NCBI GenBank assembly: GCA_024641705.1
Contig: JAHECO010000002.1
Location: forward strand, 72,282-136,281
Length of the DNA stretch: 64,000 nt
Source: Candidatus Kryptoniota bacterium
GTDB lineage: Bacteria; Bacteroidota; Ignavibacteria; Kryptoniales; JAKASW01
Direction of reading: 5' to 3'
Shown here: positions 18,795 to 29,157 of the stretch, piece by piece
Numbering within the stretch: position 1 is the first letter of the stretch
Layout of the letters: the number at the start of each line of letters is the position of its first letter
Notes under the pieces: generated by a model
What the model was told of the DNA's origin: nothing
Database searches by the model: none
Seen by the model: the letters and a program-made list of their open reading frames with translations, nothing else
Made by a program: the position numbers and the translations under genes

Positions 18795-18882
18795 TGGTGC
18801 CGAAGGCGGGACTCGAACCCGCACGCCCTTTCGGGCCCTGCCCCCTCAAGACAGTGTGTCTACCAAGTTCCACCACTTCGGC
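18795..18882 (-). tRNA. tRNA-Leu, anticodon GAG
   Basis: Reads on the minus strand with a 7-bp acceptor stem (GCCGAAG with CTTCGGC), an anticodon stem CTGTC/GGCAG around the loop TTGAGGG, a long variable arm (class II) and T loop TTCGAGT. The 3' CCA is encoded (18795-18797). Anticodon GAG decodes CUC and CUU. It lies 45 bases downstream of pnp and may be transcribed with it. Confidence 0.95.
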
Positions 18883-23391: not shown

Positions 23392-26157
23392 TTACGCAAG
23401 CGTTCGCTGGGTCTCCACTATCGTAAATGCTTCAATATTATCGCCGACCTTGACGTCGTTGAAGTTCTCGAGGCTGACGCCGCACTCGTACCCTTCTTCG
23501 ACCTCCCTTACATCGTCCTTGAACCTCTTGAGAGACGCTATGGTGCCTTCGAAAACGACGATCCCATCACGGACCAGTCTTACGCGGTTGTTCCGCTGGA
23601 TCTTGCCGTCCACGACATAGCAGCCTGCGACCGTTCCGAATTTCGGCACCTTGAAAGTCTGGCGGACTTCGAGCGAGCCGACGACATCCTCTCTGAGCTC
23701 AGGGCTCAGAAGGCCTTCAAGGCCTTTGCGGACGTTCTCGATGGCGTCATAGATAATGCTGTATAACTTAATCTCCACCAATTCCGCCTCGGCCAGTTTC
23801 CTCGCGGCGGCGCTGGGCCTGACGTGGAAGCCGAGGACTATCGCGTTCGAGGCGGCGGCGAGAAGCACATCGGATTCCGAAATCGCGCCGACGGCCTTGT
23901 GGATCACCTGAACTCTGACTTCCTCGTTCGAGAGCTTTGCGAGAGCATCACTGAGGGCTTCAACCGAACCGTCCACATCGCCCTTCACGACGATGTTCAG
24001 CTGTTTTATCATTCCCTCCTTGATTTCCTTGGAGAGATCTTCCAGCGTCACATGATGCTGCGTGCCGCGCATTTCCTGCTCACGCCTGATGACTTTTCTC
24101 CGGTTGCTTATATCGCGCGAAATCCGCTCGTTCTCGACCGCAACGAGGACGTCGCCCGCAAGCGGCAGCTCATCGAAACCGATGACCTGCACGGGCATCG
24201 CGGGTAGAGCCGATTCCATCTTCTTGCCGCGCTCGTCGGTCATGGCACGCACTTTCCCGCTCGTCGTCCCGGCAACATATGCGTCGCCGATTTTCAGAGT
24301 CCCTTTCTGTACAAGGACCGTTGCAACGGCACCTCTCCCCCTGTCGAGTGTAGATTCAATCACGACACCTCTTGCCAACCTGTCTGGGTTGGCTTTCAGA
24401 TCCAGGATGTCCGCCTCCAGGAGGACCTTTTCCAGGAGAAGTTCGACGTTTGTCCCCTTCTTTGCCGAAATCTCAACCGACTGCGTTTTCCCGCCCCACT
24501 CTTCGAGGAGGACGCCGTGATCCGCCAGCTGCTTCTTTATCCTGTCCGGATTTGCTTCAGGTCTGTCGATCTTGTTGATTGCCACGATGAGCGGCACGTT
24601 GGCTGCGCGGGCGTGGTTGATCGCTTCGATCGTCTGGGGCATAACATTGTCGTCTGCAGCGACTACGAGGATAACGATGTCGGTAACCTGTGCACCCCGG
24701 GCACGCATAGCCGTGAAGGCTTCATGGCCGGGAGTGTCCAGAAAAGTTATCTGCTTGCCGCTTGGCAGTTGTACCTGGTAGGCACCGATGTGCTGCGTTA
24801 TTCCGCCGGCTTCCCCGGCGACCACGTTCGCCTGTCTCACGAAATCCAGCAGCGACGTCTTTCCGTGATCGACGTGTCCCATGATTGTGACAACGGGAGG
24901 CCGGGACTTCAGGGCCCCGGCGTCATCAGCCTTATCTTCAAGTACCTCGTCCGTGTACTCCTGCTGAAGCTCGACCTCATAGCCGAAATCATCTGCCAGG
25001 AGTGTAATGGTCTCCAGGTCCAGCCTCTGATTTATCGATACCATCAGTCCGAACGAAATGCACTTGGAAATTACTTCGGCGACATCGACGTTCATCAACT
25101 TTGCGAGTTCGCCGACCGAGACAAACTCGGAGAGCCTCAGTTTTCGCTTCTCGATTTCTTTCTTCTCAATTTCGATCTGGGCAGCCTCGAATTTTTCTTT
25201 CCTTCTCTTTTTCCTGATGGCGGCGCGCTCCGACTCGCCGGCATCTTCGATGCTGGCCATAGTACGCTGGAAGGCCAGGTCGACTTCCGCCTGATCCACG
25301 TCCGGATGCCTTCCCTTCTTCTTTTTCTTCTTCTTAACCTCTTCTTCAGATTCGGTCTCCGGGACGGGCACGGGCTCCGTACTCTGCTCGCGGATTTTCT
25401 TCTTCTTCTTTTTCTTCTTCTTCTGAGACTGAGTCTCGGTCTCGAGCTGCGCTTCGGCTTCTTTCGTCTTCTTCTGCGCTTCTTCAAGTTCCTTGCGGAG
25501 CCGCATTTCCTCTTCGGTGATCAGACGCCCGGTCCTGAGATCCATCCTTCCGCGGATCTTCAATCCCTTCTCTTCCTTCTTGGGCGCCGCCTGCCGCTCG
25601 ACACTCTCTTTGGCAACCGTCTCGCGGGCGGGCTTCTCAGCGGCGACCGGACCAGATTCCTTTCCGGCAGCGGCCGGCGGCTCTGCGATCTCCGCGCCGG
25701 GCGGTTCCGGCTGTGCGGTCTGCGTAACACCCTCCCCCGCTGTTTCCTGTCCCACGGCCTGTTCCACAGCTCGGTCTGTCTCAACCAGCGGCGGTGCTTC
25801 GACGACTTCCGTCTGTGCGGGAGGGGCGGTCGGCTCCGCCGGCACGGGAGGTTCCATCTTGGCTTCGGCAACATGCCTGCTCTCGACCGTGACCGTGTCC
25901 ACGAGTCTCTTTACCGCGACCTTCTCTTCCTGTTTCTCAGTAAGCTGCTCCTTGATCTTCTGCCGCTTTTCTACCTGATCCAGTTCCTTCTTGAAATGAG
26001 CAGCCAGCTCATTATACATCTGTTCATCGACAGACGAGGTACGTTTGACTTTCTCATGCCCCTTGGTTTTGAGAAAGTCGACGATCTGGTCGGCAGACAC
26101 CTGGAACTCTGATGCGACTTTTGTTACGAGTTTTTTCTTCGTGGTTGTTTCAGCCAT
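23392..26157 (-). CDS. infB: Translation initiation factor IF-2
   Basis: A 921-residue GTPase that brings initiator tRNA to the 30S subunit. The IF2 N-domain is at residues 8-60. A long low-complexity linker (about 65-290) is rich in Pro, Ala and Glu, then Lys, with a run of nine lysines at 246-254. A second IF2-N-like segment (342-375) precedes the GTPase domain, with G1 GHVDHGKT (427-434), DTPGHEAF and NKID. Domains II to IV follow, with [16 protein letters not shown] near the end. It lies 25 bases after nusA. Confidence 0.97.
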
Positions 26158-26182: not shown

Positions 26183-27490
26183 CTATTCATCCTGGGGTTC
26201 GTTTTCCGGTTCTTCCTCGAGTTCCTTGCGCATCATTTCTTTTATTTTCAGTATTTCCTCTTCCGGGATCTCGACATCCAGCTTGATTTCATCGTCGGTT
26301 GCTTCCAGGACATTTCTGGCCGTCAGGTATCCGGCATCAAGGAATTTGGTCAGAAGCTCTTCGCCGAGTTCCTCTTTGAACTCGGAGAGATCGATGTCGT
26401 ACATCTCCGCCTCTTCTCCTTCTTTTCCCGCGCCCTTGGCTTCCGGCACGACCCCTTCTCTCATAAGATCGATATCGAAACCCGTCAGTCTCGACGCGAG
26501 CTTGACGTTTATGCCTTCCTTGCCGATCGCTATCGATTCCTGATTGTTGTCGACCCAGACCTGCGCCTTCCTGTTCTCCAGGTCCACTTCAACTTTGGTC
26601 ACTTTGGCGGGTGTAAGGGCGCGCTCCACGAAAGACTTCGGTTCCTCCGAGTAGAGGAGCACGTCAATATTTTCATTGTTGAGCTCGCGGACTATGGAAT
26701 GGATCCTCACTCCCTTCATTCCGACGCAGGCTCCGACGGCATCGACTCTGGAATCGTTGGAGAGAACGGCCACTTTCGCCCTCTTGCCGGGATCACGGGC
26801 GATCGCCTTTATCTCGACCACACCGTCGAATATCTCGGGGATTTCCATTTCGAAGAGTTTCTTCAGAAACATCGGGTCGGCCCTGGAAATGATTACCTGC
26901 GGACCGGAGGTCCCTTTCCGCACTTCTTTCACCACGGCTCGGACCGTGGAATTTTTTCTGTAGTGCTCGTTGGAGATCTGTTCGGACCTGGGAAGGAACA
27001 ACTCCCGCCGGTTGTGATTCACGAGGATGAAATCACGCTTGACCTGATAGATCTCACCGACCACTATTTCGCCGATCATCTTATTGTATTCGTCGTAGAT
27101 AACATTCTTCTCGTATTCGTGCAGGCGCTGCAGGAATGTCTGCCGCGCGAAAACCACGAGCCTCCGCCCGAGCTCTTCAGGAGGGACTTCTTCGGGATAC
27201 TGGTCTCCTATTTCGAAATCGCCGTCGGGTTCGAGCTGCTTCAGTGCTTCGAGGCTTATCTCTTTACCGGGATTCTCGACCTGCTCGACGATGTTCTTAA
27301 TGACGTAAATTTCTATTTCGCCGCGATCGACGTTTGTGACGATATCGGTCTCGACGTCATCGCCGTATTTCTTCTTGACTATTCCCGCGAAAACCTCTTC
27401 AAGTATTTCAGATACGACCTCTTTGTCGATGCCCTTCTCTTTTGCGATTTCTGCCGCGGCAGATATGATCTCATTCTTCTCTGCGTGCAT
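26183..27490 (-). CDS. nusA: Transcription termination/antitermination factor NusA
   Basis: A 435-residue RNA polymerase-binding factor affecting pausing, termination and antitermination. The order is N-terminal domain (from AAAEIAKEKGIDKEVVSEIL), S1 domain (IYQVKRDFILVNHNRRELFL), then two KH domains (VGACVGMKGVRIHSIV, and IAIGKEGINVKLASRLTG). A single helix-hairpin-helix-like unit near residues 385-415 and an acidic tail end the protein. Because the operon leader contains a terminator, NusA may control its own synthesis there, as known for E. coli. Confidence 0.96.
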   Translation of the reverse strand: MHAEKNEIISAAAEIAKEKGIDKEVVSEILEEVFAGIVKKKYGDDVETDIVTNVDRGEIEIYVIKNIVEQVENPGKEISLEALKQLEPDGDFEIGDQYPEEVPPEELGRRLVVFARQTFLQRLHEYEKNVIYDEYNKMIGEIVVGEIYQVKRDFILVNHNRRELFLPRSEQISNEHYRKNSTVRAVVKEVRKGTSGPQVIISRADPMFLKKLFEMEIPEIFDGVVEIKAIARDPGKRAKVAVLSNDSRVDAVGACVGMKGVRIHSIVRELNNENIDVLLYSEEPKSFVERALTPAKVTKVEVDLENRKAQVWVDNNQESIAIGKEGINVKLASRLTGFDIDLMREGVVPEAKGAGKEGEEAEMYDIDLSEFKEELGEELLTKFLDAGYLTARNVLEATDDEIKLDVEIPEEEILKIKEMMRKELEEEPENEPQDE

Positions 27491-27501
27491 TTATCCTCCT
27501 G

Positions 27502-27960
27502 TCACCATCTGATTTTAACTCTTGCTTCTATTATCGAGTCGAATCCCAGTTCAATCGAAGCCGTTTCTGTTCTCAGTGTTATCTTGTCGTCAGTCAGGCC
27601 GGTCAGGTCGCCTTCCGCCTGCCTCGTCTCCCCCGCTTCCAGGTATTTTACCGACATCCCTCTTCCTATGTTGCTTTTGTACTGCCTTCTGTCCTTCAAC
27701 GGCACGCCGACTCCCGGCGAGGAGACATCCAGCCGAAAACTCTCACCGAGGATACCCGATGTCTCAAGGAGAGGGAGCACTTGCCGGCTGATCTCGGCGC
27801 ATTCGTTGATGGTTATCCCCCTCTCGGTGTCGCAGAAGACCTCAAGCAGCTGCCTCTTGCCTTCTCCCTTCAGGGACAAATCGACAAGAAAGGCGCCCTG
27901 GTTCTGGACCGCAGGGTCGAGTAATCCTCGCAATTTCTCTATTTTCGCAGTTCTTTCCAT
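27502..27960 (-). CDS. rimP: Ribosome maturation factor RimP
   Basis: A 152-residue protein required for 30S assembly. The order is a first alpha/beta domain with GAFLVDLSLKGEGKRQLLEVFCD and ITINECAEISRQV, then SFRLDVSSPGVGVPLKDRRQY, the family signature, and a C-terminal Sm-like domain. It is the first gene of the operon. The start codon stands only 7 bases after the U-run of an intrinsic terminator (27968-27996), and the ribosome binding site AGAAGA is weak. Confidence 0.94.
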   Translation of the reverse strand: MERTAKIEKLRGLLDPAVQNQGAFLVDLSLKGEGKRQLLEVFCDTERGITINECAEISRQVLPLLETSGILGESFRLDVSSPGVGVPLKDRRQYKSNIGRGMSVKYLEAGETRQAEGDLTGLTDDKITLRTETASIELGFDSIIEARVKIRW

Positions 27961-27967
27961 ATCTTCT

Positions 27968-27996
27968 AAAAAAAATAGCCCAGAAATTCCGGGCTA
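27968..27996 (-). terminator. Intrinsic terminator in the rimP operon leader (probable attenuator)
   Basis: On the minus strand a 9-bp stem with one G-U pair and a 3-base loop (27976-27996) is followed directly by eight U residues (27968-27975), and then after 7 bases by the rimP ATG. No gene lies upstream in this direction, since the neighbour is divergent. The terminator can therefore only act on the operon's own transcript. In E. coli, terminators in the leader of the same operon mediate NusA autoregulation. Confidence 0.8.
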
Positions 27997-28014
27997 ATCG
28001 TCCGAGACACATAA

Positions 28015-28043
28015 AATATACTCGGCGCAATCCACTTTTTCAA
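28015..28043 (-). promoter_or_regulatory. Sigma-70 promoter of the rimP-nusA-infB operon
   Basis: TTGAAA (28038-28043), exactly 17 bases, then TATATT (28015-28020) on the minus strand; each hexamer matches consensus at five of six positions. Transcription should start near 28008, only about 12 bases before the terminator hairpin begins. Confidence 0.7.
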
Positions 28044-28140: not shown

Positions 28141-28168
28141 TGTCATTCCCACGTGCGCGGGAATGACA
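28141..28168. repeat. Palindromic intergenic repeat
   Basis: A perfect 10-bp inverted repeat (TGTCATTCCC with GGGAATGACA) around an 8-base loop. Its outer arm TGTCATTC is shared with the composite repeats at 32753 and 33468, so it may belong to a related family of dispersed palindromes. Confidence 0.6.
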
Positions 28169-28293: not shown

Positions 28294-28923
28294 ATGTTCC
28301 GTTTGAGGCTGTTTCAGTGCCTTCTACTGATAACCGCATCACTCCTGACAGCCGGCTGCGCTTCGTTCGAGAACATCGATTCAAGGATTACGCCACCAAC
28401 GGTGATTGAAAAAGTACCGCTGCCCACGCCCCCGGCCGAATTGGCCACCAGGGATTTCTACATCAAGATGGAAATGCTCATAAGCAAGGATGGGACTGTT
28501 CGGCACGTGGTCCTCACAAGATCCACGGGGGACGCCGAATGGGATTCCGCGGCGGTCCAGCGGATAATGATGTGGAAGTTTTCACCGGCCTTGTTGGACA
28601 ACAAGCCGATTCAAATGAGGATTATTCAGACCGCGAGGGTCGTCTCAAGTCAGCCCGTAGTGATGGATCTTTCGGAGATAATCGTCGGCACTTATGCCGA
28701 GGCAGATTCGGCGTACAGGCTCATCAGGGAGGGGAAAGATTTCGATTCCACTGCTTCAATGTTCCGTTCCTCGGTTCCCGGCATGCCAAGCGGACATTTA
28801 GGCGAAGTGGATATCCACCGCTTCCAGAGCGAAATCCAGGACGAACTGCTGGCTCTGAAGCAGGGTGAATTCACTCACCCGCTGCCGCTCGGGTCGTATT
28901 TCGCCATTTTCAAGAGACACTAG
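28294..28923 (+). CDS. Lipoprotein with TonB-C-like and parvulin-like domains
   Basis: A 209-residue protein with a lipoprotein signal peptide: basic start, hydrophobic core and lipobox LTAGC, giving Cys22 as the first mature residue. Residues 55-112 resemble a TonB C-terminal domain (MLISKDGTVRHVVLTRSTGD, then AVQRIMMWKFSPAL). Residues 125-209 resemble a PpiC/parvulin prolyl isomerase domain (AEADSAYRLIREGKDFDSTA, then PSGHLGEV, then LLALKQGEFTHPL). Either domain is common alone; I do not know this fusion as a named family. It probably sits in the outer or inner membrane facing the periplasm. It stands alone, ahead of tRNA-Ser. Confidence 0.7.
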   Translation: MFRLRLFQCLLLITASLLTAGCASFENIDSRITPPTVIEKVPLPTPPAELATRDFYIKMEMLISKDGTVRHVVLTRSTGDAEWDSAAVQRIMMWKFSPALLDNKPIQMRIIQTARVVSSQPVVMDLSEIIVGTYAEADSAYRLIREGKDFDSTASMFRSSVPGMPSGHLGEVDIHRFQSEIQDELLALKQGEFTHPLPLGSYFAIFKRH

Positions 28924-29012: not shown

Positions 29013-29096
29013 GGAGGGTTGGCAGAATTGGCTAATGCACCGGTCTTGAAAACCGGCGCCCCTCGGGGCTTGGGGGTTCGAGTCCCTCACCCTCCG
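29013..29096 (+). tRNA. tRNA-Ser, anticodon TGA
   Basis: Acceptor stem GGAGGGT with ACCCTCC, anticodon stem CCGGT/ACCGG around the loop CTTGAAA (anticodon TGA), a long class II variable arm with the stem CCCC/GGGG, and T loop TTCGAGT. The discriminator is G, typical of tRNA-Ser. CCA is not encoded, unlike in the tRNA-Leu of this window. It reads UCA and, by wobble, other UCN codons. Confidence 0.95.
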
Positions 29097-29157
29097 CTTC
29101 TCCAACCCTTCCTACACGTTAACACGACCACAAATCAAAATCTCCTTGGAGGACTCA

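What the first reader, a model, noticed from the sequence alone, without database searches (positions are those of the whole stretch)
27961..28043. Promoter, intrinsic terminator and start codon compressed at the head of the rimP-nusA-infB operon
Seen: a good promoter (28015-28043), then about 12 bases later a 9-bp hairpin with eight U residues, then 7 bases to the rimP ATG. The neighbour upstream is divergent, so the terminator acts on the operon's own RNA. Known: the E. coli operon has leader terminators used for NusA autoregulation. Inference: a minimal attenuator in which most transcripts stop before rimP unless termination is prevented. The closeness to the ATG means an initiating ribosome or a bound factor could compete directly with the hairpin.
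Basis: partly seen in the sequence, partly recalled or inferred. Interest (0 to 1): 0.65.

Follow-up and report, generated by a model that had tools for sequence, protein, structure and literature searches.

The report
Promoter-abutting terminator guarding the nusA operon
Right after the promoter of the rimP-nusA-infB operon lies a built-in stop signal that is conserved across a whole bacterial phylum and moves to nusA when rimP is lost, so it is most likely a brake through which the cell keeps its termination factor NusA in balance.

Summary
On the minus strand: promoter TTGAAA-17-TATATT (28043-28015), 9-bp hairpin (27996-27976), U8 (27975-27968), 7 nt, rimP ATG (27960); the upstream neighbour is divergent. 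It is not chance: 86 of 89 rimP upstream regions from the class carry a strong hairpin plus U-run (shuffles 0.7%), the stem changes by compensatory swaps, and a promoter sits 10-26 nt before it in 82 of 87 (shuffles 2.3%). It reaches across Bacteroidota (49 of 50, looser scan). In 768 kb of its own genome no other gene shows the arrangement. Two families of the class have lost rimP; there the same promoter-hairpin-U-run stands before nusA in at least 26 genomes. So the attenuator belongs to nusA, which argues against RimP as general regulator and for NusA feedback, as reported for B. subtilis. With only about 6-16 nt of RNA before the stem there is no room for a riboswitch, antiterminator or leader peptide. 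Kind: the known 'rimP-leader' attenuator in a reversed-polarity, minimal variant. Termination itself and NusA's role are inferred, not measured.

The parts
28015..28043 (-). promoter TTGAAA-17-TATATT of the operon
   Evidence: -10 box 6/6 invariant and -35 block 9/10 invariant in 9 same-genus genomes while the spacer is 2/17
27997..28008 (-). presumed initially transcribed 5' segment, about 12 nt (GTCTCGGACGAT), with a genus-conserved CTC[CG]GACG
   Evidence: start site inferred from the -10 position, not measured; 7/11 of the 11-nt initial segment invariant in genus
27976..27996 (-). terminator hairpin TAGCCCGGA-ATT-TCTGGGCTA
   Evidence: stem 15/18 columns invariant in genus; compensatory swaps across class
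27968..27975 (-). U-run (8 U)
   Evidence: 8/8 invariant in genus; U8 or U5-N-U3 typical across class
27961..27967 (-). AGAAGAT, short SD-like linker between U-run and ATG
   Evidence: poorly conserved, 2/7
27502..27960 (-). rimP, first gene of the operon
   Evidence: PF02576, E 3.3e-17
26183..27490 (-). nusA, proposed effector and regulated gene
   Evidence: NusA_N, S1 and KH domains
23392..26157 (-). infB (IF2), third gene of the operon
   Evidence: IF-2, GTP_EFTU and IF2_N domains

Best explanation
The operon's own promoter fires straight into an intrinsic terminator. RNA polymerase makes about 12 nt, then the hairpin, then U8; a fraction of complexes stop there and release an RNA of about 41 nt, and the rest read on into rimP-nusA-infB. 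NusA, bound to RNA polymerase, promotes hairpin folding in the exit channel and so raises termination; when free NusA is scarce, readthrough rises. This is negative feedback on NusA and, with it, on IF2 and RimP. Shown here: the parts, their conservation, their dedication to this operon, and their presence at nusA where rimP is absent. Inferred: that termination occurs, that it is partial, and that NusA is the effector.
For: Strong hairpin plus U-run in 86/89 class regions against 0.7% of shuffles, with a promoter 10-26 nt before the stem in 82/87 against 2.3%. Stem pairs swap GC<->CG between lineages; arms exchanged between sequences with different 5' arms pair in only 10%. Genus footprint covers -35, -10, stem and U-run but not the spacer or upstream flank. 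Exactly one copy, at rimP, in each of the 8 of 13 genomes hit by the exact pattern. Only gene in 768 kb/647 ORFs with such a terminator and a divergent neighbour. Phylum-wide, 49/50 (looser scan without its own shuffle control). In rimP-less families f14 and f18 the element precedes nusA, with infB following nusA in the two checked. B. [quoted passage not shown] The very short RNA before the stem leaves no sensor RNA, favouring a factor carried by RNA polymerase.
Against: No transcript data for this organism: the start site, the short RNA and the extent of termination are unmeasured. NusA and IF2 stay linked in the rimP-less genomes checked, so IF2 or another factor is not excluded. A 9-bp stem with a perfect U8 could terminate well without NusA. 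The stem polarity is opposite to the published rimP-leader motif.
Confidence: 0.6

Rival explanations
1. Attenuator with a different effector: IF2, another elongation factor (NusG, a cold-shock protein), or RimP relieves or stimulates termination.
For: IF2 is encoded in the same operon and follows nusA in rimP-less genomes; E. coli operon transcripts are all cold-induced (PMC6511841).
Against: RimP is unlikely as general effector because families without RimP keep the element. The short RNA before the stem leaves little room for RNA-binding regulators. The experimental precedent is NusA.
Confidence: 0.17
2. Unregulated partial terminator: it only lowers and fixes operon output, with no feedback.
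For: The stem is strong and the U-run perfect; nothing in the sequence shows a sensor.
Against: Output could be lowered far more simply by a weaker promoter; phylum-wide retention of a full promoter followed by a terminator is hard to explain without a regulatory use.
Confidence: 0.1
3. The hairpin works on the finished mRNA (5'-end stability or translation initiation), not as a terminator.
For: The stem ends 15 nt from the AUG; the U-run could pair with the A/G-rich first codons (89-nt and 64-nt folds) or serve as an S1 landing site.
Against: The U-run is fixed directly 3' of the stem over the whole class while the distance to ATG varies from 7 to more than 50 nt; in f14 the element lies about 90-160 nt before nusA. 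That fits termination, not ribosome-site control.
Confidence: 0.07
4. Ordinary 3' terminator or insulator for transcripts coming from upstream.
For: In 52 of 82 regions with a resolvable upstream neighbour that gene is co-directional.
Against: In the window and 29 relatives the neighbour is divergent, and the operon's promoter lies upstream of the terminator, so the operon's own RNA must cross it. The five other start-proximal terminators in 768 kb all follow a co-directional stop by 18-35 nt; this one does not.
Confidence: 0.03
5. The roughly 41-nt released RNA is itself a small regulatory RNA acting in trans.
For: The 5' segment CTC[CG]GACG and the stem are conserved within the genus.
Against: Across families the sequence changes freely while the structure stays, not expected for a trans-pairing RNA; no Rfam family matches.
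Confidence: 0.03

Closest known systems
rimP-leader attenuator (Naville & Gautheret 2010, PMC2965389; Rfam RF01770)
   Same: Intrinsic-terminator hairpin plus U-run in the 5' leader of rimP-nusA-infB, 4-130 nt from the gene start, no visible antiterminator; NusA proposed as effector.
   Different: Stem polarity reversed (GCCC..GGGC instead of GGGc..gCCC); RF01770 does not match; hairpin begins only about 12 nt after the presumed start site; found before nusA in rimP-less lineages.
NusA-stimulated attenuation of the B. subtilis nusA operon (Mondal et al. 2016, as summarised in PMC12288461)
   Same: Same operon, leader intrinsic terminator controlling readthrough; works alike if NusA is the effector.
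   Different: B. subtilis rimP leader is about 180 nt (PMC2965389); here about 48 nt in all. NusA dependence is not measured here.
E. coli metY-rimP-nusA-infB leader with terminators t1 and t2 (PMC6511841)
   Same: Terminators upstream of rimP; NusA represses the operon.
   Different: No tRNA and no processed leader here; one promoter and one hairpin.
Structured 5' element of rimP in Flavobacterium psychrophilum (PMC9723704)
   Same: Same phylum, transcribed region 5' of rimP judged a likely cis-regulator, conserved in the family, no Rfam match.
   Different: Not identified there as a terminator or tied to NusA in the passages read.

Membership tests
rimP-leader (Naville & Gautheret 2010) | Lies in the 5' leader of the rimP-nusA-infB operon | tested here: met
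rimP-leader (Naville & Gautheret 2010) | Rho-independent terminator hairpin with U-run | tested here: met
   structure only:
rimP-leader (Naville & Gautheret 2010) | 4-130 nt between terminator and gene start | tested here: met
   7 nt from U-run, 15 nt from stem
rimP-leader (Naville & Gautheret 2010) | Stem motif GGGc(...)gCCC | tested here: not met
   The window has GCCCgg..cuGGGC. Bacteroidia-like relatives (GAGGGGAC..GTCCCCTC) and order relatives (GTGGG..CCCAC) have the G-first polarity
rimP-leader (Naville & Gautheret 2010) | No antiterminator structure | tested here: met
   About 12 nt of RNA precede the stem; folds show no competing structure of similar strength
Rfam RF01770 rimP | Covariance-model match at the site | tested here: not met
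   no match at the site; own-genome best 27.3 bits elsewhere, cut-off 47
NusA-autoregulated attenuator (B. subtilis nusA type) | Termination in the leader increases with NusA | not testable with these tools
   needs in vitro transcription or NusA depletion
NusA-autoregulated attenuator (B. subtilis nusA type) | Element is tied to nusA rather than to rimP | tested here: met
   present before nusA in f14 and f18 genomes without RimP
E. coli metY leader type | tRNA gene and tandem terminators between promoter and rimP | tested here: not met
   no tRNA in the leader; one hairpin
Leader-peptide (ribosome-mediated) attenuation | Short reading frame upstream of or within the terminator | tested here: not met
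   no start codon in the roughly 12 nt before the stem

The most novel reading that the evidence does not exclude
A phylum-wide NusA homeostat with no sensor RNA: the promoter drives transcription straight into a terminator read only by NusA on RNA polymerase, and the device is inherited with nusA, so that when rimP is lost it stands before nusA. It would be among the shortest attenuators known (released RNA about 32-45 nt).
Probability: 0.45. Interest if true: 0.62.

Novelty: new variant of a known kind. Interest (0 to 1): 0.5.

Why it matters
The rimP-leader was called the most ubiquitous bacterial attenuator (PMC2965389), yet which product it serves was left open between NusA and RimP. Lineages without rimP that keep the element before nusA answer this in part: it serves nusA (with infB). 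The version in this class has almost no RNA before the hairpin, so it is a clean substrate for asking how NusA alone tunes intrinsic termination close to a promoter.

Tried and rejected
Rfam at gathering and relaxed thresholds gave no RNA family at the site. RF01770 on the own genome gave only sub-threshold hits elsewhere. A riboswitch, T-box or ribosomal-protein leader was rejected because only about 12 nt precede the stem. Ribosome competition was rejected on geometry. An alternative rimP start upstream was rejected because of an in-frame stop 36 nt upstream of the ATG. A MAFFT alignment of hairpins from many families aligned badly because loops differ, so pairing was tested by core-pair tallies and arm swapping; those tallies use hairpins found by pairing, so the independent test is the shuffle comparison. 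My promoter search fixed the spacer at 17 nt; the same rule was applied to the shuffles. Another copy of the motif was sought: none in the own genome by exact pattern. The Mondal 2016 paper is not held and is cited through PMC12288461.

Full report
What is there. On the minus strand, reading 5' to 3': GGGTTGAAA (the -35 hexamer TTGAAA is 28043-28038), a 17-nt spacer, TATATT (28020-28015), 18 nt, the hairpin TAGCCCGGA-ATT-TCTGGGCTA (27996-27976), eight T (27975-27968), AGAAGAT, and ATG of rimP at 27960. The genes that follow are rimP, nusA and infB by Pfam, and the upstream neighbour (28294-28923, +) is divergent. rimP has an in-frame stop 36 nt upstream of this ATG and no other start between. 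If transcription starts about 7 nt after the -10 box (general knowledge, not measured), the RNA has about 12 nt before the stem and would end near 41 nt.

Is it chance? The hairpin plus U-run folds at -13.5 kcal/mol where shuffles average -4.3 (0 of 200 as good). A strong terminator appears in 0.7% of shuffles of this upstream region (139 of 20,000). In 768 kb of the same genome (647 ORF-genes by a simple caller, 26 strong terminators outside genes) six lie within 60 nt upstream of a gene start: five follow a co-directional stop codon by 18-35 nt and look like ordinary gene ends; rimP is the only one with a divergent neighbour. The core sequence, as an exact pattern, occurs exactly once in each of 8 of 13 near genomes and never in the other 5; all 8 matches end 9-19 nt before the rimP genes mapped.

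Conservation. I took rimP upstream regions from 61 related genomes and 80 public contigs found with NusA (MAGs titled Bacteroidetes, Ignavibacteria, Melioribacter). After removing duplicates 87 of 90 carry a hairpin and U-run, 68 of them within 25 nt of the start codon. With stricter criteria 86 of 89 do, against 0.7% of 3,560 shuffles; a TTG-17-TA promoter lies 10-26 nt before the stem in 82 of 87, against 2.3% of shuffles. In nine same-genus genomes aligned without gaps on the hairpin, the -10 box is 6/6 invariant, the -35 block 9/10, the stem 15/18 and the U-run 8/8, while the spacer is 2/17, the flank upstream of the promoter 0/22 and the linker before ATG 2/7. Between families the stem changes as pairs: GCCC/GGGC, CGCC/GGCG, GTCC/GGAC, GTGG/CCAC. 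Core pairs 1-4 each occur as both G-C and C-G, and exchanging arms between sequences with different 5' arms leaves only 10% paired. So structure and U-run are kept, not sequence. The upstream gene is divergent in 30 and co-directional in 52 of the resolvable cases, so the element does not depend on its neighbour. In a phylum-wide sample 49 of 50 regions show it with a looser scan, usually behind a TAnnTTTG-type -10 box; that scan allows longer loops and had no separate shuffle control.

The test that separates rimP from nusA. RimP (PF02576) is missing from 44 of 291 class genomes at least 95% complete, mostly two whole families, f18 and f14. In these nusA is the first gene of the unit. Upstream of nusA stands the same arrangement: for example TATATTTG, then GGCGCTCCTAAAAGCGTC-TTTTTTG in f14, or TAAATTTG, then AATGGGCTGTATGCCCATT-TTTTG in f18. 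The strict scan finds it in 26 of 32 scored loci. Two of the remaining six are cut off by the contig end (L217, L240). Three (L210, L214, L218) show a hairpin with U-run by eye but with a longer loop or shorter stem, and one (L213) has a hairpin with a poor U-run. infB follows nusA in the two I checked, one of each family. The element therefore goes with nusA-infB, and RimP cannot be the general regulator.

How it most likely works. Across the class the gap from -10 box to GC core is 13-22 nt (10th-90th percentile), leaving roughly 6-16 nt of RNA before the stem: too little for a ligand sensor, an antiterminator or a protein site of the usual kind. What remains is a factor on RNA polymerase. 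NusA is the natural candidate: it stimulates intrinsic termination, and in B. subtilis its operon is autoregulated by NusA-stimulated termination in the leader (PMC12288461). In E. coli the operon has terminators t1 and t2 before rimP and its transcripts rise when NusA-dependent termination is reduced (PMC6511841). I put about 0.85 on 'regulatory or partial terminator on the operon's own RNA' and 0.6 on 'NusA feedback'. Everything about actual termination is inference from sequence.

Comparison with what is known. Naville and Gautheret (2010, PMC2965389) described the rimP-leader as the most ubiquitous attenuator: a short terminator with a GGGc..gCCC stem, 4-130 nt from the start, no antiterminator, with NusA (or possibly RimP) proposed as effector. 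Our case works like it and sits at the same place, but the stem motif is reversed in this class and the Rfam model does not match. Other phylum members and the sister family f2 have the G-first stem, so polarity flips within the phylum; this argues that the published motif is not itself essential. In Flavobacterium psychrophilum a transcribed, structured 5' element before rimP was reported without Rfam match (PMC9723704), which supports that such leaders are transcribed in the phylum. What I did not find in the papers searched is the near-zero 5' RNA, the phylum-wide presence in Bacteroidota, and the presence at nusA in rimP-less families.

Verdict. It is a new variant of a known kind; the useful new evidence is that the element belongs to nusA.

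Noticed in passing
window 28143-28168: A near-perfect palindrome GTCATTCCCACGTGCGCGGGAATGAC lies between the divergent genes; it looks like a REP-type unit but is the only copy in 768 kb of this genome.
   Followed up: partly
window 28294-28923 (+): The divergent neighbour joins a TonB C-terminal domain (residues 57-111) to a PPIC-type rotamase domain (133-208), an unusual-looking combination.
   Followed up: no
window 29013-29097 (+): tRNA-Ser (TGA) between the TonB/rotamase gene and the next gene cluster; another tRNA, Leu (GAG), at 18795-18882 (-).
   Followed up: no
L012, immediately upstream of rimP: In one same-genus genome (G011) only the 3' arm CTGGGCTA, the U8 run and the start remain; the sequence changes abruptly at the hairpin loop, a real rearrangement or an assembly break at the hairpin.
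   Followed up: no
families f14 and f18 of the class (G034, G043, G052, G155, G262-G291, G319-G323): RimP_N is undetectable in whole families of near-complete genomes, an apparent loss of a widely conserved 30S maturation factor.
   Followed up: partly
class loci such as L026, L047, L086, L105: Many U-runs have a recurrent interruption (TTTTTGTTTG or TTTTTATTTG), a feature that could make termination weaker and more dependent on NusA.
   Followed up: no
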